Position numbers and translations under genes: made by a program | Notes under the pieces: model-generated | Database searches by the model: none | What the model saw: the letters and a program-made list of their open reading frames with translations, nothing else | What the model was told of the DNA's origin: nothing | Part shown: one piece after another, positions 363 to 24,600 of the stretch | Layout of the letters: every line of letters starts with the position of its first letter | How positions within the stretch are numbered: position 1 is the first letter of the stretch | Assembly (NCBI GenBank): GCA_018389105.1 | Contig: JACATO010000330.1 | Coordinates: 310,001 to 374,000, forward strand | DNA: 64,000 nt | DNA from: Nautilus pompilius | Taxonomy: Eukaryota; Mollusca; Cephalopoda; Nautilida; Nautilidae | Reading direction: 5' to 3'

Positions 363-3300
363 CTGCAATAGACAGACAGTCTTATCAGACAAATTCCAGA
401 AAGCAGCATACAAAGGCACAGATGTAGTCTCTCGCATGACCTACAATACTAAAGTCAAATGATGCAATTGCTTACATCATACTCCCATTTCTCAAATATT
501 CCACTAACTATTGCTGTTAAAGATTTAACAGATGGAATATCAGACTTTAACAACTAGTTTGTATAGAAATGCATGTGTTGAGATTAGTAAAAATTTCAAT
601 AAAAATCAATATTTTTCTTTTTTAAATCAGAAAATAAAAGTTGACTTTTTTGCTTTAAAAAATCCATCAATGTCCACGAAGTTAAACAAAACTATGTATT
701 AATAAACAAGGAAACACTTGCATACATACAGGTTATATACATTATAAAGTAGTACAAATTCATATTTTTCAGCCACTGGACCACATGCTTGCATGATAGA
801 CAGCAAACACTAACATCTTATATTCTTAAACACTTTTTTTAAAACAAACAAATGTGAATAGCCATTTTACATCCATCTTATATGTCCATCACAGCTATGT
901 TGTTGGGTCATTCATAGGGAAGCAACCCTGGTGGGTGGGGATGTCATGCCACAGCTGTCTACTAGTTTCTGCTGTCAATCCTGTCATGTGGGGCCCAACA
1001 CTTCCAACTCTGGTAGAGATAGCTCTACTAGAACTTCATTTTTTAGATGTAAGAGGAAACCCATAGTTTTCTGGTGGAGAAGAGAGAAGAAACTTCTGCC
1101 AGGAAAGAAGATATGTCCAACTGAGCCAGCCCCATCCCTGGCTCTCAACTAGCGGACTACCAGTGAACCTTGCCATCTATCAGTTACTTCTAAGACAATT
1201 TATAATATACCATGCTGTAGGAAAGAAACTTTAAAACAAAAACCTAGCAAAACACTTCAAGACGTACAATCATATTAAAATCTTAAAAACAGCCTCAAGA
1301 AGTTAATAAAATTTTAGAAAAATATTTTATATAAAGGCAAAGTTGGGAAATGGCTTTATGCTAAAGAATTCGCTAAAAATGATAACAAAAGCAGTGATTC
1401 TGTTGCTGGAGTAGATGTATAAAAGCTAATCTGGACATTTTCACATCAAATTTATATTTAAAATTTTTATAAACTTCATCAGTAAATTTCACACACAAAA
1501 TATCCATCTATATTTATTTCTTCCCCTCCAAGTCAAGGCAACTTCAAAACATTCAAGATTTAGTTTTGTTCAAACCAATACCCACCTTATAATCAATCAC
1601 AACACGCTCAATGATAGCTTTATCTAGCATCTTCTTGTACCATTCCTGTAGCCGCTTTGGTTTAGGTATTTTCTGCTCTGGAGGATGACAATGAAAGATG
1701 TAATCATCACCTTCACTTGGTGGGCATGCCCAAATATGGGCCATAGTGTAGCCTAGTCGTCTGACGTACTCCAGGTAGGCAATAAGAATTTCATGATAAA
1801 CAGCTGTCCTGAGATATCGTGGTTGAAAGAAATGAACACTATCTAAATATGATATATACACACGTCTGAAAAAAAAGAGAGAGAAAGAAATGCAAGCAAA
1901 TTAAGTAATAATCTAATGATATGGAACCAGCTGAAAAACACCCTACACTGCAGATAATGTTTAGCAAAAGAATGAAGTGGATAGAATTTTTTAGAGTTGG
2001 TAAACATTCTAAAAGATAAAAATTTTTAAAAAACTGAAATAGTTATGTAGTTTTTTTCTTTAATTTAAATTTCTGATAAGTGTAATTGCATGTAGAGTGA
2101 AAAACAATAAGGAAAAATCATCAACATTTCTAATTCCCTCAACATAAGCAGATGACACACCAATAACTTATTAGTTAAAACAACCAAGCTACCTAATTAA
2201 ATAACACCACCATCTAATTCAGCATTCCAATTATTCCAACAACTTATTGGGCAAATCTTTTCACAACCATCAGTTTGCAGATATTCAGTTAATCAACACT
2301 AAAAGGTACTTATTTACCAATCAAGCATCAGAAACTCTTTAGCCCATGCAGTAGCTAAAAGTTTCTATTATGGAAGACTGAGACATCTTTATAGAAAACA
2401 ATGCAAAATTTATAGTAGCAAAGAACAACAATTAGATCAAGATGGAAACTCATGTATATCTCAGGCCATCCCTCTTACTTTAAATTTTTCAAATTGTTTA
2501 ATATTAGAAACTCATTCATTTACCTTGTATTGGGATGAGCACACTGTGAACCATATTCTTGTACATGCATTCCAAAAAAGCAAACATCAACTCCATCGAT
2601 TTCTTCAAATGCAAACATAGCCTTTGCTCTATATGGAAAGTGAAAGGGCATTTCATCAAACCTGAAATAAATCACAATACAATTACCATACTGAAATAGA
2701 CACCACTTTTAAAAAAATTGCGTCCAATCAAAAACAAATGCTTCACATCCATCCCATTATAGTATTGATAAACTACTTAACATTAAAAAAAAATAAAAGC
2801 TTCATCAAAATTTTAAAAAACAGAAATCACCAAGGCTACAACCCAGCCATACAAATTGCTCTTTTTTAAATTTACTTATTAAAAATTAACTAACTAAACA
2901 ACATTATTGCATATTTTCATGGGAATAGCAAATCAAAAGAAAGTCAAATATGCTAGGAAATAATAGCAGCAGCTATCAGTGCAACAAATTAGTTCAGCAA
3001 CCTTTTATTCTAAAAATGATCATCATCCAGGACAGCATTCCAACAATAAAGAATCCAAAATGGCCTGATGGACCTCAAATATTTATCAAAAGCAAAATAA
3101 CAGCAAAAGGCTTATTTTACTTTTCACAAAATACAGAAACTGGTCAAAAGCAAAGCGAGTGACCATCTGTTTTCTACCAAACAACAGGCGAGGTACCCAG
3201 TCTTATTTCATATCTCATTAGTCCTACTCACCTTTGCTTCATTCCAGGTTTGACTTCAACAATCTTGTCTGAACTTGAAAGAACTCTAATAGTGACCTCT

Positions 3301-6300
3301 CCAGCACCAGCATCTTTCTTCTTTAAAAAATTATTTACACGATTCTCTAGATATATGCCAAGCTTAGTGTTGGGAAGTCCTGAAAACATAACAAAGATTG
3401 AAAATGACTTTAAAATAACATAACTTTCAACAATTAAATGAATTCCACACAACCAGAAACTTGCTCTTCAGTTCAGTCCATCCATTGAAAAACACAGATT
3501 ATGCACATATGTTCAAAGCATCTTTTAAACAACAGCAACATCTCAAGTATACTTACTTTTTGATGTGTATTTATTTTCTTTTTTCTTCATTCCTTTAGCT
3601 TTCAAGCAGTTATCGCAAACAAACCTTTAAAAAATAAACAAAAATGTCCTCCATTATAGCACATTTACAAGGAAAACTAAAAAAAAAAAATAAAAAAAAA
3701 TAAAAAATAAAAAAAAATAAAATAAAAAAAAGAAAGAAAATTTTGCTTGTGGCATGCACTTCGTTTTCTTCACATAACAAATGTAACACATTTACAACTA
3801 CATAAAAAAGAAATTTGAGAAATATCATCTATCAGGAAAAGAATTTGGTCTACTCTATTTTCCATTCTTTAATAAGCAAATAGTTGATTTTAAATGGACA
3901 AAACTCCCTACCTACATTTTTAAAAAGTCCAGTTCACTTTGACCAGATTTTCATTGGTGCTTAAATCAGTTTTTCAAATCAAGGTAAAAAAGATTAAATA
4001 TTAGATGATTTCTTTAGTTAAGAAATACACTTACAAATGGTTGCAAGGTACCACCCCACCAGCAAAACTGTGACCCTTTACATACCAGTATTTCCTGTGG
4101 GGGTGTGAAGAATGCTGGTCTACTTGAATGAGGCTGTGTCCTGATCCAATTCTGAATGACATTCAAGAACTTCAAAAAGATTCCTTTCTAAACCAAACAA
4201 CGCATTTTAAAACTCTGCAGTACTTTACCACATTCAAGCAGCAGCAGTGAACTGAATTTGCACATCCTAAATCCCAATGCAAATGGTACCCTACATCAGG
4301 GTATGTCTAGTACCGGTGGGGCCTGGGTTAGATTTCTGCCTAGTTCAATTGAGTACTGCTGCAGTTTCTTCTTGAATGTCTAGCCTCTGTGTGTGCATGT
4401 GAGTGGTGTGTTTTTCTGGGTACTCTGATGCCCTGTCAGCTCAAAATGAAAATGTTGGGTTGGGGTAGGGTGGGAATTTGTTAGCTTCTTTCCACTATTG
4501 TTAGCACCTACAATCCTCACTGCTCGGAGCTATTTCCATTAACACTTTTTGGGATTTCTTACATAAGAAAATTACACATTCAAAAGTTTGTAGCCATTAC
4601 CATCAATTAGAAAATAATAATAATAGTAATAATACAATTTCTGTTTTTTTTTTTTTTTAAGTGTTAGAAAGAACAAACAAATAAAAACTTACCCATTAGT
4701 CCAAATAGGCTCAAAGAATAACACGCAGATCTGATGGAGTTTTCGGCCACATTCCAAGCACTCAATAAATCTGGTTAAAAAAATTTCTATTTTTTAGAAT
4801 TAACTTTTGTTATAAATTAAAAAATTGTACAAATTCCATTTTTATAAAACTACTTCCCAACAAAATCAATGACAACTTTAAACATGATTAATAATACAAA
4901 GCAATTTTGTTTGTGTCATTTAGAATATGCAGCAGCTGCTGCAAACCTGAGCTATTACAAAGGAAATTTTTTTTTTGTTTCTACTAATTTTCTTGACTTC
5001 ATAACCAACAATTTATAAGAATTTCTCCATTTATTATGCAAAGTTAATTCAAGCTTTCATTATTACTGTCCAAAGCAACATTGTTACTGTGTCAAAAATA
5101 ATTTCATTCCAAAAATTAAAAACTATTGGTGCAAATACTGCAAATCTTCCATTTATTGGTAAATATTGAAACAGAATTAGTATACTTTGTCAAGCTAGAA
5201 AAGCATGTAACTGACAAATTTGCATAAAAAATCTTTTTCTTAAAAATGGAAGCATATATTTAAACAGTAAAACCCTAATCTGCATTTATAAAACAATGTA
5301 CAATTTGAACATGTACTATTTATACAAGGCACTAATAAATGATGGGGAAAAAAAATGTTCGCATTCACACACTTTGTGTACAGAGAACCCTCTGGGACTC
5401 AAACAGATTATTCCAGTTATATAACACAAGATAAGCACATAATTGCAAGCTATAAAGACAAGTTACAGGCTAGCAGATAGCCATGCCACAAACAGGAAGT
5501 TCATAGGCAAAAGCTAATGGACTTTGAAAAGGTGTGTGCATAGTTGGACAATGGGACATTGGTAGAAGCCAACAAAAAAAAAACAAACAAAAAAACTGCA
5601 AGACACTAAATATTTTGCTGTTGATTGTTAACAGGCTGATTGTCCAATTCAACAGAAGGCATAAGTCAACTGTGTGTGTACATTCTGGATGTCCAAAGCC
5701 AACAGAGCAAATACATCATGTTGTGAGCAGCAGCATGGAAACAAACACCAAACAGTTGGTTGGGTCAGATATCTAAAAGAACAATCAAATGTTTTGTCTA
5801 AAGCATGGTGGTAAAATGGAAGAATGGCAAGACCACTCTTCACCAAATACAATGTCACCACACCATCCCACCTTTTGGAACATTCCTTTTCTTCCATGAG
5901 TCCAGGCTTACACAGCAATATTTTAGGGGTGTGGTAACATCCAACATAAGAATTTTTAATGAACCATCTGCAAGCCAGGACAAAATATAACCAGCCATTT
6001 GTCATAGTGTGGGGTGAAATGTGGATTAACAAATGATTACAGCTGGTTGTCTGTGAAGATCTGATACATCAACATTCTCCAAGAGTCTGTTAGCTTCCTG
6101 TGTATGCCAATGATCATCTGTACAAAGAGGAAGTATTTACTTTTACGAAAGATGCAAAGAGGAGGAGAGTCGGGGCTTCAGAGCTAGCCGAATCAATAGA
6201 TGCCATTAAGCTATCCTTGACTAATGTGTGTGAAAGCGACCTTATAAATCCTGGAACTCCCTAAAAGTGTATGCCAGGAAGGGAATACAGTCCCATAAAC

Positions 6301-9300
6301 CAGAATTGCTGATCTCAGCCAGTTGACAATGCAGTGATACCTTATATAAGGTCAAAAGTTGTAACATAAAGTATTAACCCTTACTCAAGTTTTGCCAGCA
6401 GTATATATAGTTCTTTCAAATGTGGGTGTTGATTTACTTATGTCATGTCTCTGTATGTATCATATATAAAAGCTTAGAACTGACGTTTGGTTACTGTACT
6501 AAAGTTGTACTATTATTTGACATCACTAATACTTACGGTTCAAGATCTAACTGGTCGTTTTTCATCCTCACAAACTGATCCTTCTTTATCCGCCTGTATG
6601 AAGTAAAAACATGGGTTACTGCATTAACAAGCAATGAAAACAAACACACACTCAAGGATACACAGTAATTTTAACCCTTCGAATGCCACCACATGCTTTA
6701 TACACAGGCCTAGAGGCCTTCCCAAAGCACCTTCCTAAAACTTATTTCCAAAACATTTAAACCTTTCTGCGACTGTTTGGTTTTTGATTTTGTTTTTTCT
6801 GGAAACTGGTGTCAAGCAAGGGGCTCTGTGCACAATTGGTGACAAAGGGTTAAACCCACATTACACTTGTACCTTGCTAAAATGTATATGACACTTACGG
6901 CTCTAGAGATAACTGGTTGCTTTTCATCTTCACAATCAGATCTTTCTTTACTTGCCTGTATGAAATAAAAATAGTTGTCATGACATTCAAAGAGAGCAAA
7001 TAAACGACTGGAAAACAACTGTACTGTACTCAGGAACTAATTACCAAGTCTGTCGCTCTTTTCTGTTTGACATTATTGCCACATGTCAAATCTAGGTAAA
7101 AAAAAAAAGAAATGCGATGAACTTCCAAGACACGTGGAATCCAAATACTAATTAATGGATCTGTATTTCACAACTTTTTTTTTAAAAAAGTACACACACA
7201 CACACACACTTTGATTTAAGAGACAGCGAGACATGATCATCTGTAACATTAAATTCACCTCTTCTCCCCATTTATTTCCAAAGACAAACAATCGTTGTTG
7301 CCTGCAGAAATGAAGGTGACATCTCTGATTGCAGCTATTAACAAAATAGAAAACCACCAATTTGTTTTTTTTTTAAAAAAAAACTACCGTCATCTATGGG
7401 AGAGAAAAGTTTAAGCAAAAATAAAAGCCTATTTAAAGTGAAAAATTTGCTGTAAGAAAGTAAATAAATAGTTTGATTAATACAATGCTTTGGCCAGTCA
7501 GTCACTAAAGCAGCAATTTTATAACACTCACTATCGAAGGTGTTATGCACTGCTAAACAAACTGGCATTATTCAGAGAGCAGATATTATGTATAATTCTA
7601 GCTGTAATGTAAAAGGAGGTTTTTTTTTGTTTTTTTTTTTCATTTTGCAATGAAATATTTCTATTTAAGAAATAATCCTGAGCCATTCTTTAGTCTGTCA
7701 TTTAGAAGAAAGTCAGGTGTGTACACCATTTATAAAAAGCAGACAAGAGGTAGGTAGGTATCCACAGCTATGTAGTGAGGGTGATGTCCAATTTGAATGA
7801 ACAATGGTCAGAAGTTTAAAAACACCAAAACAGCCTTGAAAGCTAAGGGAAAAATTAAATAAAACTATTCAAACATAAGATGTTTCATCATAATACTGGG
7901 TTCATTACACTAGAAATAGTCAGGCTAGAAAACTGAATGCAGTTCCTATCAACATTTTCAGGGGTCTAGCTAGAAAAGAGCAGGATTTGGATTTTTTCTT
8001 CTTAGCTTCTTTTGTACTGTATTGTGGGAAAATCTCCAAGTATTCCATTAAAAAGAAATTTTTGGTGGATTAAATAACCAATCTGGCAGTCTGTTTCCTA
8101 AATACTAGGGAAAAAGTTTTTAAAATAAGATGAATGAATTACTGACATTTGCCAGCATAAATCAATTTTAAATTCAATGAAGCCTTACATAAGTTATGGT
8201 GGCTTCCTGCCTCCTCCTGGAGGCTAAGTAAACTAAGTCAGTCAGTTGGCATCATCTTTTGCCTGGTCTGCAATTTAAGGATATCTCTGACAGAAGTTCA
8301 GGTTTTCTACAGTGTTACAGAAATCATTGTAGAAGAAATAACTGCCATTATTATGCAGGAAAGTGGGTAATGCATCAATAGTCTTAACAAAAAGTAATTA
8401 TACCTGCCCATCTTAGCAGTGTTTAGTAGCAAAAGATCAATTTGCTACATAAAATTCTCACAGAAAAATAAGTGCCTCTATACTGATTCAGAATATCACA
8501 ATAAAAAGTAGATAAAAGCTGAAAGCTCATATAAAGAGCCTAAAGTGTGCCGGTCCATAATTTCCTGACTTCCGCAGAAAGGTTAGTTTTTTTTTAAAGA
8601 AAGAAAAAAGGACAGGTAAAGTACTTACGTGACAGGTTGAGACGGATCATCTGACAGTTCCACCTCTTCACCTTGAATATCTTGGAAACATTTTTCACAG
8701 TAAACATATCTGTCGGAGAGAAGGCCATATTTCCGTGAACTGCACAACCAGCCCATGAAAAATAAAAAAAGGGGAAGGGGGGAATGGAGATAAGCCACAA
8801 ACACACCAACATGCCACGAGAAGAAAATGCATACAAAAAAGTATTCTAACTAACATGCAAAGCAGCACCAAATAATATTCAGCCAAGCCAACAATATACA
8901 TGCTGCAAATCTATCAGCCACATTTCAACATAGCCCTGTAGTGAGTAGCAGCAGAATATTACATGTTTAAATGGTAAGTGATCTTTCTTGATCCTCATCA
9001 TCATCACTAAAATCTTACAGTCCATGTAGAATTTCCAGGCTCTATCAGCTTTTGTGGGTGGGTGGGTGGGGGTGGGAGAAATGACAGTTTATTACATACA
9101 CTAATTTTAGAAAGGAAAAAAAAAAACTGAAATTATATTTTAAAGAAGTTTGTTTGCCTTTCTTTTTTTCATTGTGTATTTAAATGAAGTCTATAAAGCC
9201 CTATATTTGTAATACTTCCTCGCTCGATATTAATTCATGGGCCCCCCCACCAGATATTACAGATTTTCTTTCTCTGTTAGCACTCTGTGACATCATATGT

Positions 9301-12300: not shown

Positions 12301-15300
12301 AATAAGAAAAATATTAAAATTTAGAGTCAAGGAATACAATCAAAGAACTGTCGGGGTAGCTGGTCAATTTTGGCATTCAGTTCCTCAGATTAAAATTAAA
12401 GTACACTGTTACATTTCCATAAGTCTCTCTCTGTACCTGTAGATAGATCCCTGGGTTACTTGTGAAAATCTCTGCATTACTTAGTGCTTCGTTTGTAGAT
12501 TAAACTTTTCATAGCTCCTTAATTTTCCAAATGAAATAATTGCCAACTAAATTTACTAAGATGATAATTTTTAAATAATCCCTCAACATTCTGTTAACTT
12601 GTGTTCTTTGCAATTGTCCGACAGTAGCAGAGACTGAAATATTAAAGCTGTAAAGGTTGACAAAAACTGCTTTCCAGTTCAATTGTAATATATGATGATG
12701 TTACTACGAGTGAAGCAAATCTGGGGTCTGGGGATACATTATTCAAATCACTAGCATTATCATTAATAGTGCCAATAAGAATGACCTTACAATTTTGTTT
12801 CCTGATGACTAAAGTAATCCACTAGCAGATTTGAAATAATCAAATTACACACTTTATCAAGTTTTCCTACGATAGCAGTCATTTTATTTGTATACATTTG
12901 AAGTTAAAACACATCCTCAGAAGATTGTTGGAAGGCATTTTGAAGACACATGCAATCTTTGTTAATGCTAAAAAGGAAATGTTACAGAAAGCATTTAAAA
13001 TTTTAATAAAATGAGGGGATGCCTACCTTATTTTCTTCCTGTGTGGGGTTCATTTTATCTTTGTGCGCTATGAGGTTACACTTACCACGATACAATGCAC
13101 AAAATATTCCAAATAGCCAGCCATTATATGCATTGCATAATAACACAGCACACAGATAGCTTTCTCGAGCTGGAGAATATAGCACTGCATCCAAATGTGT
13201 TTTTGAATTGCCCTATACTAATGCATAAAACCAATTTGAAACTCACAGGAGTCTTTCTTTTTGTTCACTTTTACAGCTATGAATATCGTAACTGTTCCTC
13301 CTTTCAAACTTTTGAAATCAAATCTAATAAGTAAATTAAAATGCTTACAATAAAGCAGCTACAATAAATTTTTAAAAAATGCATTTCCTACTTACCTATT
13401 CTGGAAGCTATAATACACAGCATCTCTTGGGATTGTACACAACTGTTTTCCATAGCAACAAAGGACCTGTGGGCTGAACACATACTTTCTACCACAACAG
13501 TAGCCCAGACTCTGCATAACTCCATCTATTTCTCCTTCAAACACCTCAGCTAGCTAAAAGTTTATATCAAAAAAAAAAAAAAAAATCAAAAAAATCAGAA
13601 TATTCATTTTTATCATTAAAAAAAAAAAAACTAAAATATTCAGTCCCCTTGGGGCTGGTCAGATTTAATTTTCTGTCAAATGACAGGCTCATTTTCCAAA
13701 TCATGTCTGTTTTTTTTTTCCAGTCCCCATCAGCTTACCTCTTATCATAAACCATTTAACTACTCTCAAGGATAGTCACATCCCAGCTGCCATTCCCCAA
13801 ACACATTATTAGCTCCTAATAGCTACTCACTATCCTTTCTCTCCAACACAAACTAGAATCAAATTCATTAGCAGACTTTGTCTTCTCTTTGCTTGATTTC
13901 TAGAACATAAACTCAGATATGCTGCAGATGTCATTATCTACACAAGACTCAGCAAACAAAAGCCATGGTTTTAGCAGAAGGTTCTGAGAGAATTTATGTG
14001 CACTTCCTTTTAAATTGTATCTTACATATACACGAGACACCTGCAGTATTGTCATTCGCCATTCTTTTTCAATCAATTAAAGGGTTTCACTATGAAAAAT
14101 ACCCATAAAAGGGTAAGAACCCGCTGTACCACACTCACCTTTGTGCAGTATTTATAGACTCTTGAGGTTTTCCTGTTGTACAGCCAGGCGTTTTCCAGCA
14201 TGAGCCACACATCATCTACATACTCCCATGGGTCCTGATACTGGCCAGTGTCAAGCTTCCGCTTTATTGTCGACAGATCCATAGGTTTCTTTATGATTAC
14301 AAAATAGTCCTGAAATAAAAAGAAATGTTCATTTTCTAAAGCCAAAAGTCCAAGAACTGCATATCTTGGCTTAACTGGTTCTCTCTCTCACTCACTCTCT
14401 TTCTCTTACACACGAGATAGAAAACAACACAAATATCACTTTCCTTGGAATACATTAAAAAAAAAAACAACTATAAAGATGTACTCTGTAACTGTTATTC
14501 ACTAAAACCAAGTTAGGCAACAAAAAAAAACAACATCCAAAATCAGCAAACATTGCACCTTCAAGACATTATCCATATTTTCAATGGGAGAGTACAAACC
14601 GGACCTTTCAGACACCAAACAGCAGACTACATTAACTCAATGAACATCTATTAGTAAAGAGTGCTCTGAATATTTCATCTGTGTGTGTACTTGGCATTAA
14701 TTAGGCATTCACATGTTTCTAAATGGACTTAGTTTTTAAACTTTATTTGGCCCTGTTATTATATTTTATGTCTATTTGATCTGGCACTGAAATATCAAGT
14801 TACTTGTTTAGAAAATTCTCTCTCTTGTAACAACTATGACAACACCGTTTGTTTTTTCTAGTACCGATCCTATATACAAACATTATGATCCAAAACATAA
14901 CAAAGCTCAACATAATAGGTAATGCTTCCTCAATCTGGAAAAAAATCATATTAGTCAGCATCTACATGTGATTAATTAAAGTGGGATCTCCAAATCTAGA
15001 AAGTCATGTTTAAAAACTAGAGAAATTTAATAGGAGGGGCAACAGACAGACTTGGAGCATTTGAAGAAAAAAAAAAAAAAACTAGCAGAGAGGAAGGAAG
15101 CTTCCTTCATCCAAGTTTACCAGAAGAAGTGGACCTATAGAAAGCTTTTTCTTAATTAAATAATTTAAATGACACCCCCCCCCACTTTCTTCTCAAAGCA
15201 AAACAGAAGTTTCAGCCACCAAGACTTCCCTTATCACAAGTCCACAAAATCGACAACAACATGCATTTTTCTGAGATGATGATTTTGACATCTTTCCAAA

Positions 15301-18603: not shown

Positions 18604-21600
18604 CCTGTTGGTGAATTTTCAGTAAAATGACACCTTTTCTCAACACAAGTTTGCTTTAAGTTAATTTTAAGAGATAACCAAAGCCAGAGCTTCAATTATT
18701 TTAACTAAGTGAAGAGCCTTTTCTATATTCTATATCCCTACTGTTTTTTTTTTATAAGTTACAAACTCCAAAAAGGTAAACATCATGCTGCACTTCATCC
18801 CTTACACAAGTAGAAGCAAATGAAAGTAGTATTAATATACCCTTTAGCTGGTGTTCAGTCCTTTAGAAATGTGCCTGCCATTTAGTAGTTACATAGCACT
18901 AAATGTAGTATAGAACAAAAACAAAATTATCAGAGTATTAATAAACATTTTCTCCTTCCTTTTTAACACTTTCCTAAAATAACACACTTAACTTTTTCAA
19001 ACTTTGGAAACCACATAAGTTTCATGTGATTTCATGATTATCCATTTCTTTCAGAATGAAGTTCATTTAATTCCTGTGTACCTACTGAAGAACACTGAAG
19101 TGCCTCAAATGCTACCAAAAAGTGTCCAAAAAACTCTTGAGACTTAACGCTAATGTCACTGACTGAGATGCTTGCTGTGGTCCCCTTTGTTTAGCATTCT
19201 TTTTGTTTGTGGAAAAAAAAAAGTGACATACAGGCATTACCATAGTAACTGACTTAATTTCCTTGAGCCAAATGTGTTCATATAAAAGGTGTTTTCAACA
19301 TCCAGTTATGTGCTGTAAGTAATAAATAGGCTCTACATACATACCAACAAGAATCTAACCATTATCTACATTTTAGAAATAAATCTTAAGAAATGCTTTA
19401 GAACTACATCCTTAATCAAATATCTCTCCTTTCCAAAGTTAACAAAAAAATTAATTTCTTCCCAATTAGGTATTAGAAAAAAAAAAAAAAAATTTCCTAC
19501 TGTACTTCTGGAAAATTTAATAATTCAGTCAGAAACAGAGCTGGTAAATAATTAAAAAATCATGGCGGATTGTTGTTTAGAACTCATGCTAGCAAAGAGT
19601 TGTACAGTATCCACATTTAAAACCAGTGCCAATTCTACTTCCTTCCATAAATTATCTCATCAACATGAAGACTTTTCTCAGATATGAATAATAAACACAT
19701 GAAATTGCTGCAGTGGAGTTCTCAGAAAGAAGTTAATTTAATAAATTATGCATGGTCCAAAATCAGACTAGGCCCTTTCAGCTAAAACAAAAATTTGAAA
19801 ATCAAACAAAGTAAAAAGAACTTGAAGGACAAATTTATCTATATCTGTCAATATGTGATCTTGTGTTTTCATAAAAACCAAACTAAATAATCTGGTGTAC
19901 ACTGCTGTAAAAGTAAAAGATGTCAGTCAAAACCATTTTATCCTCAATGTTTTTTGCATGATTAGAAAATGTCTGACATTGCTGCAGGGACAGATTCCAT
20001 AGAAACACCACAAATGATGTATGCAGACCAACAAAATAGCATGCTGACAGTAGTAAAGAGGGCAAATTCTCATTGAATCTATCTAAAATGAAATTAAATA
20101 AATGTAATTACCTGGTATGAAGGACTTGAAGCTATTATTGAAGAAGGAGATACTGATGACACGAGCGGAGATGATAGTGGAGGAGATGGAGTTGGATTGC
20201 TGTTTGATGCAACAGACTGCCTTGTCACTGCTGTCTGGAACGGTGACTGAACCACTTCACTCACTCTGTTCGGTCGAATGTTCACCTGGGGTGGTGGAGG
20301 GGTGGTGTGAGGGGGTAGCAAAGGTAATCTCTGTATGTTGGGTATAGAGGGCGTTGGAGTAGGTGGTGGCAAGCTATATGGATCATTGGCTGTGTGCTGG
20401 GCTGGCATTCGCTGGCCTGGTGTATTGAGAAGAGGCCCATCTGAAAACAAAAATTTATGAAATTCTCAAAATTTGAATCAGGCTTGATAACAGAACACAG
20501 CAAGCTGTGAAACAAGCCATCATTTACACAAAGAATTTTCATTTGTAATAATTACAATCCACAGAAACCTATTTTATTAAAGTTGAATTAAATTTGAAAA
20601 TTACTCAAGTGAAAAGAAATACATCTTTATACACATCATTTCTCATTTATTCACACATTTAAAAAATAAAAATTTCATGACTTGTGTGAAAAAAAACTGA
20701 AAATAATGAGTGCTACAATCTCATTAGACACTATTAGCAATAATAAAATTTAATAGGTTAGCTGATTCTGCCTAACAAAGAGAAATAGAATTGCATCCCT
20801 TCTCTCAAAGTTAGAATCTAAATAAACTATTCAAAATGCAGCAGTTTCAGAAATATTTTCTTGCCCAGTAAAAGGACTTTCAGCATTAAATACAGTAAAA
20901 GCTCTTTTAACTGGCATTGAATTATTTGGAGTGTTCAAGTAGCCGGCATCTGATATCACTCATCATTTTCCCATTGTTTTCGGTAACTGTTGGTAGGTGG
21001 CGCCAGAATGTCATATTGATTGCAAACAAAATGTGCGCGGTCTCAAATCTGAACCTTCTCCAGTTTTTAGCAGTGATTATCAGCCTTATCTAAGACAACC
21101 TGAAATTATGAATGGCAATATGTTACAAACAAGAAGTGGGCAGAAGAGGAAGCACGTTGTGTTGACAATAACTCAGAAATTAGACAATTCGGCAATTGGA
21201 CGAAGGTGAGAAATGTAGCCAAATAATGAAGGACTTCAACATTAGCTCACCAAAGATCTACAATATCAAGTCTCAGAAGTCAGAGATGCTGAAGTTCGTG
21301 GCCAGTTCTGAGACCAGAAAAGCTGTTGATAAACGCTGTACTTTATGTAAACCTAAGATGGAGCAGTTGGACACCATACTGTATGAGTGGTTTTCCATGA
21401 AGTGATTGGAGGGAGCTGCAATTTCTGGTCCGATGTTGATTGAAAAAGCAAGAGAGTTTCATAGGAAAATGAAATTGATTGAGAGCTGCATTTTTCCCAA
21501 TGGCTGGCTAGACATGTCGGGAGAAAAGCAATCTGCCGATCCTGAGGCTGCCAACCAATATTGTGAATTCTTCCGGAAACAGATTGAGGAACATGGCTTA

Positions 21601-24600
21601 ACCACAGTGAACATCTACAATGCAGATGAAACAGGACTCTTTTGGCACTGTTTGCCAACATCAACTCTTGCTGGTTGTGATGAAACTGTTGCTTTAGGAT
21701 TTAAGAAGAAAAAGGATCATTTAACTATGCTAATGCTGCTGCTGTTGTTGTTGTTAAGCAATGCACAACTGGTTTTTCTGTTATAGCGATAACTCTCCGG
21801 GTTGCGAACTTCTGGAAGATCATTCTTATTCTTCCATTTCTCCCATTGTTGTAGCGTTCTTAGCAGTTCTCTCGCGATTAGCTCCAGTAGGTTGTCTTCT
21901 TCTTGTGGTAGTTGGTGGGTTCTGGGGCAGTTGAGGATGGCGTGTTCAGCAGTTTCATCCCCAATACATTTCCGGCATACCGTATCTTCCGCTCGCCCAA
22001 TTTTGTTCAACCAATATTTCAGGTACGGGTGGTGGCCGCTGTGAAGTTGGCTTAGGGTAACTTGGGCTGCCCGTGCTAATGCTGCTGGGACACAGTTCAA
22101 GTGTCCAAAAGCTTTTAAAGGTGTTGTTCACCTGCCAGTTGAGTACAAGGTACAAGCTAATGCACAGATGAATAAAGAAATTTTTCTTTACTGGTTTCAC
22201 CATGTTTTTGTTCCATCTGTGAAGAACAATCTGAGGGAACGTGGACTACCTGAAGATACAGAGATTGTTTTATTGCTTGATAATTGCTGAGCTCATCCTT
22301 CAGAAGCAGAGCTTGTTTCAGGCAACATCTTTACTATCTACCTACCAGAATCATCCAGAATCTCAAGGCCATTTACAGAAGGGATTTTGTGAGGAAGCTT
22401 GTAAACTTTGAGGGCACACTACAAGAGTTTCAGTCTGCTTTCAACATCAAGGTTGAAATTTTTACGATGGCCTGGAGGAAATTGTGGGCAGAAGTGATGT
22501 TTACCAAAGGCTCTTCTGATGAAGACAACTTTCAAAGCCTTAATTTAAGGCAGAAGATAGAAGTAAAGGAAATAATGGATATCCTTTGTAATGGAAACCC
22601 CACAAACCCAATCACTCAACTTCAGGATGAGGAGGTGGAGAAATGGGTGAACATCGACCAAGAAATGTAAGTGACACGAATCATGAATGGCAACCAGATC
22701 ATTGACATGGTTGTAAAACCTGAGAGCATTCCTACCCAAGCTGACATGGATTCCAAGGAAAAGGATCATGGTCAAGAAACCAAAGTTTCTTGGGCTACTG
22801 CTGCACAATGTTTGGAAACTTTCTTAAAGTTTGCTGAGCAGCAGTCTTCTGATTCTGCTCAAGAAATTATAAAGTTGAACATTCTGCATAATAACTTCCT
22901 CAAGAAAAGGTAACTGACTTCAATCGTTGACTCACTTATGAGTAGAGTATAAACATGTTTTTGCATACAGCATTTTTATCATTAAACATTACTTATATAT
23001 GGTTGTTTTGTTTTGTTTCATAATTTACACAATTCTTTCACCTTTGGAATGATCACATAACCGGCAGATTTGATTAACCAGCAACACCAATTCCATGAGG
23101 GTGCCAGATAAAAGAGCTTTTACTGTAGTTCACTTTTCATACTCATTTGGTTAATGTCCAGCATCATTTTTAACTTTAAATCTGTTATTAAGAAATGTAG
23201 AAAATATATTAAACTATTCTGTGTAGTTGCTTTGTCCCATGTCTGCCAAACTTGTTGGATTGTCAGGAGTAGAGCTGAAGTGTCTTCAGTAGCCACTAAT
23301 TTTGTGTACATATACTGGCATGTGTGCACGCTCATGTGCAAGAGACCACAATTAAAGGTAATGTGTAAAGAAATTTGAAAAATTATTAGATAACCTATAC
23401 TTAAATTCATAAAACTGTTAAAACAATCCAATTCATTATGGGTGTTTTTTCTTCTTCTTGAGCATGTCTAGGATGTGGAGTTTGTCATCCAAATAAAAAA
23501 ATTCCCCACTTATTGGACACTGATATAACATGGTTCATTGTATGGCATTTAATTTCTAAACAGATTGGAAAAGACCAAAGATACTAGATCCAAGACATCA
23601 AAAAAATGGTTAAAGCCATAAAGCAAAAAAGACTGCACCGAGTAAATACTGCCAGAATAACCATCATTAGTAAATCTAGTTAACTGTTTTGTTGCTAAGT
23701 TTTTTTCCCCTGTGACCTTATTTTAACAGTAAGCCAATCAAAAACACACTTTTATAAACTTTTGGTACAGGTTATGTAATAAAAATTGCTATTTAACAAA
23801 CTGAAGTGGCCGTTTTACAAGTTCCACAGGCCATAATGCTGGGCTTACTGCAGTTTTCAATGATGTTATCCCAGCCACAATGCTAAGTCTGCAGCAGTGA
23901 AAGAGTTAAGTCAAATGTTACGTAAACATGAAAAATGCTGTTGATTTTTTCATAAGCAAAAGATTTTAACATTTCAGATCATTCTCAAAACTAGCTCTAA
24001 AACCTGTGATTAATCCCGAAACTGCAAGAAATTACCAGTTACAAAAACAAACAAAAATGTGGATTTTGTTTTTCTTTGTTTAATTAGATTATAAGCTTGC
24101 TCCTCTTTATGTCTGGCCAAGTTTACTGTGAATAAAGCTAAATCTCAAAAACTGGAGCTGAAATAAATGTTTCATCATAGTTAAGGCAGAACATATCAGA
24201 TGTGCACCTCCAACAGATTAACTGCACTCTTTAAACCTTTGTAAATTATATAGAACCTATTGCATCAAACCTACTAGGAATAAACATTTGAAGACAGACA
24301 ACTTCTAGTTCAGTACTTACTTTGTTGTGTAACTGATCGCATCTGGTTTGGCATACCTTGATTCGTCTGTATTCGTTTCATCCTCTTTTCCTCAAGTTCC
24401 TTTTGAATTTTGTAAATTTTTTCAGCTAATAAATGGTAATATTCTTCCTATAAACAATATAAAGATATTCAGATTTTCATCCATATTTTAAACCTCTTTA
24501 GATCCTATGAAAAGTTAGTCTTAAAAGCCTATCAATTCTGCATATAAGAGATCAAATTAGATTGAAAAGTTTACTCTTATCTTTTCCTTCCAAATATTAC

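What the first reader, a model, noticed from the sequence alone, without database searches (positions are those of the whole stretch)
6537..6955. Tandemly duplicated 57-nt exon in the CBP RING/PHD region
Two exons of identical length and phase lie 305 bases apart on the minus strand. Each has a good acceptor (catacag) and a consensus donor (gtaagt). They share 44 of 57 bases and 10 of 18 full residues, with mostly conservative changes (R/Q, I/V, F/I, R/K, N/S, D/N). Copy 6537 matches the single p300 segment. Copy 6899 has lost the ND and D acidic positions. All three outcomes keep frame: either copy alone or both. The segment sits between the RING insert and the resumed PHD in the CH2 module, which in p300 helps control HAT activity. 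Switching copies could tune acetyltransferase regulation. I do not know of this being described.
Basis: partly seen in the sequence, partly recalled or inferred. Interest (0 to 1): 0.82.

Follow-up and report, generated by a model that had tools for sequence, protein, structure and literature searches.

The report
Duplicated alternative exon in CBP acetyltransferase
An unidentified animal's gene for the transcription co-activator CBP carries two versions, side by side, of a small exon in the part that restrains its enzyme, so the cell may be able to swap one for the other; this still needs RNA evidence.

Summary
On the minus strand of a CBP/p300 gene, exons A (6955-6899) and B (6593-6537) are both 57 nt, share phase, splice-site sequences and 44 of 57 bases (best other place in the window: 32), 305 nt apart. 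Of 15 CBP exon pieces searched against the window (16 queries), only this one has a second copy.

The segment equals human CBP 1261-1279 and contains Glu1278, i.e. p300 Glu1242, a residue tied to RING-HAT autoinhibition. Both copies keep that Glu. B resembles the human exon (12 of 19 residues); A resembles it less (7 of 19).

Proof of use is missing. Differences fall 4/5/4 over codon positions, so the pair alone shows no clear protein-level selection. Against plain decay: intact splice signals, open frame, no indels (modelled joint probability 0.0007-0.0035 at the observed divergence), and introns with no detectable similarity left. No relative was found and no RNA data were available. Best reading: an old tandem exon duplication used as an alternative exon. 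Mutual exclusion is unproven; frame, spacing and splice type do not enforce it.

The parts
6899..6955 (-). Exon copy A, 57 nt, encodes (T)[18 protein letters not shown](P); diverged copy
   Evidence: catacag acceptor, gtaagt donor, open in phase
6537..6593 (-). Exon copy B, 57 nt, encodes (T)[18 protein letters not shown](P); human-like copy
6594..6898 (-). 305-nt GT-AG intron between the copies; no detectable similarity to flanking introns beyond the 16 nt before the acceptor and the 6-nt donor
8629..8709 (-). Upstream constant exon, 81 nt, [27 protein letters not shown]
4693..4770 (-). Downstream constant exon, 78 nt, start of the resumed PHD ([25 protein letters not shown])
   Evidence: Pfam PHD_P300 match
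13395..13553 (-). Coding stretch of the CBP exon holding the end of the bromodomain region and the RING start (end taken from the translated stretch, donor not fixed)
14139..14309 (-). CBP bromodomain exon, 171 nt
1586..1865 (-). CBP acetyltransferase exon (HAT_KAT11), 280 nt

Best explanation
An old tandem duplication of one exon in a CBP gene gave two interchangeable 57-nt exons. B keeps the ancestral sequence; A has diverged. Transcripts most likely carry B by default and A as a regulated substitute, giving two CBP forms that differ in the 19-residue strap joining the RING to the rest of the PHD finger. Shown: the duplication, equal phase and length, intact splice signals, and that the strap contains Glu1278 (p300 Glu1242), kept in both. 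Inferred: that A is spliced into mRNA, that it replaces B rather than adding to it, and that A's changes beside the Glu (N1272S, D1273N, D1276S, Q1266L, F1267I) alter how tightly the RING covers the acetyltransferase site.
For: 44/57 identity, z 8.5; same phase, all splice outcomes in frame. Both copies have GTAAGT donors and nearly the same 16-nt acceptor tract (15 of 16), and both acceptors rank high among AG sites of the strand (63rd and 30th of 3720, matrices recalled and approximate). Similarity stops at the splicing signals: the flanking introns give no alignment above shuffles (42 of 200 upstream without the last 20 nt, 139 of 200 downstream), whereas 100 nt or more of co-duplicated intron at 23% divergence would have been seen (P of missing it 0.003 or less). 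Under neutral decay of A, intact donor, acceptor, frame and no indels have joint probability 0.0007-0.0035 at p 0.228. Residue mapping. RING-HAT role of E1242: passage of PMC12547938.
Against: No RNA evidence and no relative. Differences 4/5/4 by codon position and dN/dS 0.47 from 4 synonymous and 9 nonsynonymous changes; number of identical residues is what random mutation gives (P 0.38-0.66). Polarised replacements are 6 on A against 1 on B, and A loses residues kept between B and human, as a relaxed copy would. If B is constrained and only A drifts, 23% divergence fits a moderately old neutral copy (P 0.26 at p 0.275). At p 0.15 the joint probability of intactness rises to 0.014-0.035. If under 50 nt of intron had been co-duplicated, its loss would be unremarkable (P 0.08-0.25). 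No pairing or motif that would enforce a choice stands out.
Confidence: 0.55

Rival explanations
1. Exon A is a decaying duplicate: a tandem copy that is skipped or rarely spliced, with no function. B alone is the working exon.
For: Codon-position spread 4/5/4 and the number of identical residues match random change. Six of seven polarised replacements lie on A. A has fewer CpG than B (1 against 3 with the junction base), as expected if CpG decayed, though this is a tiny count.
Against: No stop, no indel, perfect donor and 15 of 16 acceptor bases kept; joint probability 0.0007-0.0035 at the observed divergence, 0.014-0.035 if only 15% of A had changed. Introns have lost all detectable similarity while the exon and its splice signals have not.
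Confidence: 0.25
2. Both copies are always included, so this lineage has a CBP with a 19-residue longer link between RING and PHD, as a repeat rather than a switch.
For: Both-included mRNA is in frame, the 305-nt intron is long enough to be spliced, and Pfam still sees RING and PHD in the doubled product.
Against: The linker length is unchanged between the single-copy model here and human CBP and p300 chains (no gaps), which suggests that its length matters. Tandem homologous exons are more often used as substitutes (PMC9741552, abstract; PMC5224494, passage).
Confidence: 0.15
3. Chance resemblance or an assembly error.
For: None found.
Against: 44/57 against a window maximum of 32; the copies differ at 13 bases and the introns differ throughout, so it is not a repeated assembly stretch.
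Confidence: 0.02

Closest known systems
Tandem duplicated exon substitution (mutually exclusive homologous exons), e.g. U2AF1 exons Ab/3 and the 236 human events of PMC9741552
   Same: Adjacent homologous exons of equal length and phase; in the human set most changes are conservative and key residues are kept (abstract); here the Glu1278 position is kept in both.
   Different: No transcript evidence here. In the parts of PMC9741552 that I saw, CREBBP and EP300 do not occur in the main text; its supplementary lists, including the Drosophila list, were not read.
CBP/p300 (KAT3) catalytic core, RING-PHD region
   Same: Bromodomain, atypical RING, PHD, HAT, TAZ1 and KIX pieces recognised; the B form aligns to human CBP without gaps over the 223 aligned residues.
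   Different: Human CBP and p300 chains show one such segment; this gene has two exons for it. The Lymnaea CBP study reports that no mRNA isoforms were found (PMC9828244, passage).

Membership tests
Tandem duplicated / mutually exclusive exons | Adjacent exons that are homologous | tested here: met
   44/57, z 8.5; tblastn E 6e-5 both ways
Tandem duplicated / mutually exclusive exons | Same phase and compatible length | tested here: met
   57 nt each, same phase
Tandem duplicated / mutually exclusive exons | Both copies bear usable splice signals | tested here: met
   GT-AG, gtaagt donors, catacag acceptors; by sequence only
Tandem duplicated / mutually exclusive exons | mRNAs carry one copy or the other, not both | not testable with these tools
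   no RNA data held
Tandem duplicated / mutually exclusive exons | A device that enforces exclusion (frame shift, too-short intron, U2/U12 mix) | tested here: not met
   all outcomes in frame; 305-nt intron with a branch-point candidate 23 nt before B; both GT-AG with gtaagt donors. Not all exclusive exons use such a device
Tandem duplicated / mutually exclusive exons | Competing RNA pairings | tested here: inconclusive
   best intron pairings reached by 18, 25, 87 and 11 of 100 shuffles; one genome only
Tandem duplicated / mutually exclusive exons | Second copy conserved in relatives | not testable with these tools
   no relative in the collections offered; no animal genomes are held
CBP/p300 (KAT3) | Bromodomain, CBP-type RING and PHD in order | tested here: met
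   Pfam Bromodomain 69.7, RING_CBP-p300 86.4, PHD_P300 45.3 bits; best solved chain CREB-binding protein, E 4.5e-127
CBP/p300 (KAT3) | KAT11-type acetyltransferase | tested here: met
   HAT_KAT11 above cut-off in 3 of 4 exon pieces, the fourth at 20.8 against 22.5
CBP/p300 (KAT3) | TAZ1 and KIX upstream | tested here: met
   zf-TAZ 42.9 bits; KIX 27.1 against a cut-off of 27 on a 21-residue piece
CBP/p300 (KAT3) | ZZ and TAZ2 downstream | not tested
   the gene runs off the low end of the window

The most novel reading that the evidence does not exclude
Alternative splicing swaps the RING-PHD strap that carries the Glu1278/Glu1242 autoinhibition residue, so this lineage sets CBP's basal acetyltransferase activity, or its auto-activation threshold, by tissue or stage through exon choice.
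Probability: 0.25. Interest if true: 0.78.

Novelty: new member of a known kind. Interest (0 to 1): 0.5.

Why it matters
CBP/p300 activity is known to be restrained by the RING lying over the acetyltransferase site and by the autoinhibitory loop (PMC12547938, passages). A splice switch in the strap that carries a residue of that contact would be a genetically encoded way to set the restraint, and a natural pair of variants with which to dissect it. My ten literature searches listed no paper on an alternative copy of this exon; they cover open-licence PubMed Central only and I judged most hits by title and abstract start.

Tried and rejected
Searching for relatives: three protein scans of viral contigs and two of genome contigs gave pattern matches but no confirmed relative; these collections hold no animal genomes by design. 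The window's own genome is not held, so the species stays unknown; 'invertebrate-looking' is my impression from the protein, not a result.

Chance or repeat: rejected. Wider duplication of the gene's exons: rejected for the 14 other pieces tested; these pieces are not the whole gene. Rfam and tRNA scans of the window found nothing.

Exclusion by RNA pairing: no pairing beyond shuffles. Regulatory motifs: a CTCTCT/TCTT stretch (PTB-like) lies about 40 nt before exon A and not before B, and a TG repeat lies upstream of A; motif names are recalled and single hits carry no weight.

Selection from the pair: NG86 and random-mutation tests are inconclusive. Structure prediction was not attempted, because the spliced protein is not read from the window in one frame.

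Exon-likeness alone is a weak argument: with A's own scores as threshold, 27 open acceptor-donor pairs occur on the coding strand and 5 on the other; only part of the 27 are known exons.

Full report
What is there. The minus strand of the window encodes a CBP/p300 gene whose 3' part runs off the low end. TAZ1, KIX, bromodomain, CBP-type RING, p300-type PHD and KAT11 pieces are recognised by Pfam (KIX at 27.1 against a cut-off of 27, one of four HAT pieces below cut-off). The spliced bromodomain-RING-PHD product aligns without gaps to human CBP chains (E 4.5e-127). I placed only part of the exons and did not assemble the whole gene.

The pair. Between the 81-nt exon 8709-8629 and the 78-nt exon 4770-4693 lie two 57-nt exons, A 6955-6899 and B 6593-6537, both with catacag acceptors and gtaagt donors, in the same phase, separated by 305 nt. 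They share 44 of 57 bases; the next best of 255,772 placements in the window is 32. By tblastn each finds the other at E 6e-5, while none of 14 other CBP exon pieces has a second hit below 0.019. All four splice outcomes (A, B, both, neither) stay in frame.

Where it sits in the protein. Counting from N1168 of CBP (recalled), the segment is human CBP 1261-1279, p300 1225-1243. Its last full residue but one is Glu1278 = p300 Glu1242; a published mutagenesis primer for E1242K (PMC12598636, passage) reads as Leu-Asp-Pro-[Glu]-Leu-Phe-Val-Glu-Cys-Thr by my own translation, which fixes Glu1242 at this place independently. A review (PMC12547938, passages) says that mutations such as R1645E and E1242K disturb the RING-HAT interaction, that breaking this interaction raises HAT activity, and that E1278K of CBP was found in a Rubinstein-Taybi patient and placed in the PHD finger. 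Both copies here keep the Glu and the Pro after it.

Which copy is ancestral. Against human CBP, B matches at 12 of 19 residues and A at 7 of 19; of the replacements that can be polarised, 6 lie on A, 1 on B, and 1 site is unpolarised. The whole model scores 425.7 bits with B and 413.7 with A against the best solved chain. A changes I1262V, Q1266L, F1267I, N1272S, D1273N and D1276S; net charge goes from +1 in B to +2 in A (human -1).

Is A real? For: the donor is identical, 15 of 16 bases before the acceptor are identical, the frame is open and there are no indels. If A had drifted freely to its present 23% difference, these together have probability 0.0035 or 0.0007 for an indel-to-substitution ratio of 0.05 or 0.12; at 15% drift, 0.035 or 0.014 (the ratios are assumptions). 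Similarity between the copies ends at the splice signals: the upstream flanks without the last 20 nt give a best alignment that 42 of 200 shuffles reach, the downstream flanks one that 139 of 200 reach. A simple tandem duplication of period 362 would have carried about 305 nt of intron; at 23% divergence that would be seen (P of missing it 0.003 or less for 100 nt or more; 0.08 for 50 nt and 0.25 for 30 nt; upstream side only). So the introns have aged further than the exon, unless very little intron was copied or the gap grew later. Acceptor and donor of A rank 63rd of 3720 and 94th of 3669 on the strand (approximate recalled matrices); B's acceptor is better (30th) and has a TAAC branch-point candidate at -23, A's a TGAC at -23, which fits B as default.

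Against: the 13 differences fall 4/5/4 on codon positions, 4 synonymous and 9 nonsynonymous, NG86 dN/dS 0.47; 12 identical residues of 20 (with the shared Thr and Pro) is what random mutation gives (P 0.38-0.66), and the BLOSUM sum is only mildly high (P 0.03-0.18). With B constrained and A free, 13 or fewer differences has P 0.26 if A drifted to p 0.275. So pseudo-exon decay of moderate age is not excluded. No relative was found in the collections, and there are no RNA data.

How it would work. Nothing forces exclusion: frame is kept, the intron is long enough, both exons have gtaagt donors of the ordinary kind, and no RNA pairing exceeds shuffles (18, 25, 87 and 11 of 100). Exclusion, if real, would rest on regulated repression or activation of one copy, as described for U2AF1 exons Ab/3 (PMC5224494, passages). 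That paper also states that most invertebrate tandem exon duplications with exclusive splicing came from recombination engaging the upstream intron, in line with the acceptor-side similarity here. The functional step is inference: the strap lies at the RING-PHD junction, keeps the Glu, and in A loses neighbouring acidic and hydrophobic residues, so RING placement over the HAT site could differ.

Known or new. Tandem exon substitution is an established kind: 236 human events, 214 human genes and 154 Drosophila genes in PMC9741552 (abstract and sections 9 and 14). Its main text does not name CREBBP or EP300; its supplements were not read. My ten literature searches listed nothing on a second copy of this CBP exon. 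The Lymnaea CBP paper reports no mRNA isoforms found (passage). I file this as a new member of a known kind, in an unusually consequential place, with use still to be shown. I put the chance that A is spliced into a meaningful share of mRNAs at about 0.7, and that the choice alters acetyltransferase control at about 0.25.

Noticed in passing
window 46263-45340, minus strand: Mariner-like transposase pieces in a CBP intron; Pfam Transposase_1, 42.3 bits on the piece 46263-45709. The reading is interrupted by stops or frame changes.
   Followed up: partly
window about 21184-22667, plus strand: Pogo/Tigger-like transposase pieces antisense to CBP: CENP-B_N 24.7 bits at 21184-21402 and DDE_1 36.8 bits at 22045-22287, in separate frames.
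   Followed up: partly
window 22127-21720, minus strand: Open frame with a Cys-x2-Cys...His...Cys pattern resembling the end of a retrotransposon polymerase (impression only; no Pfam match to the 95 residues tested).
   Followed up: partly
window 8204-8709 and 7150-7215, minus strand: The intron before exon A carries a TG repeat about 250 nt upstream of it; TG repeats can bind CELF-type splicing factors (recalled).
   Followed up: no
window 4769-4692, minus strand: The PHD part reads [10 protein letters not shown] where human CBP has LHYDIIWPSG, a local departure within an otherwise conserved core.
   Followed up: no
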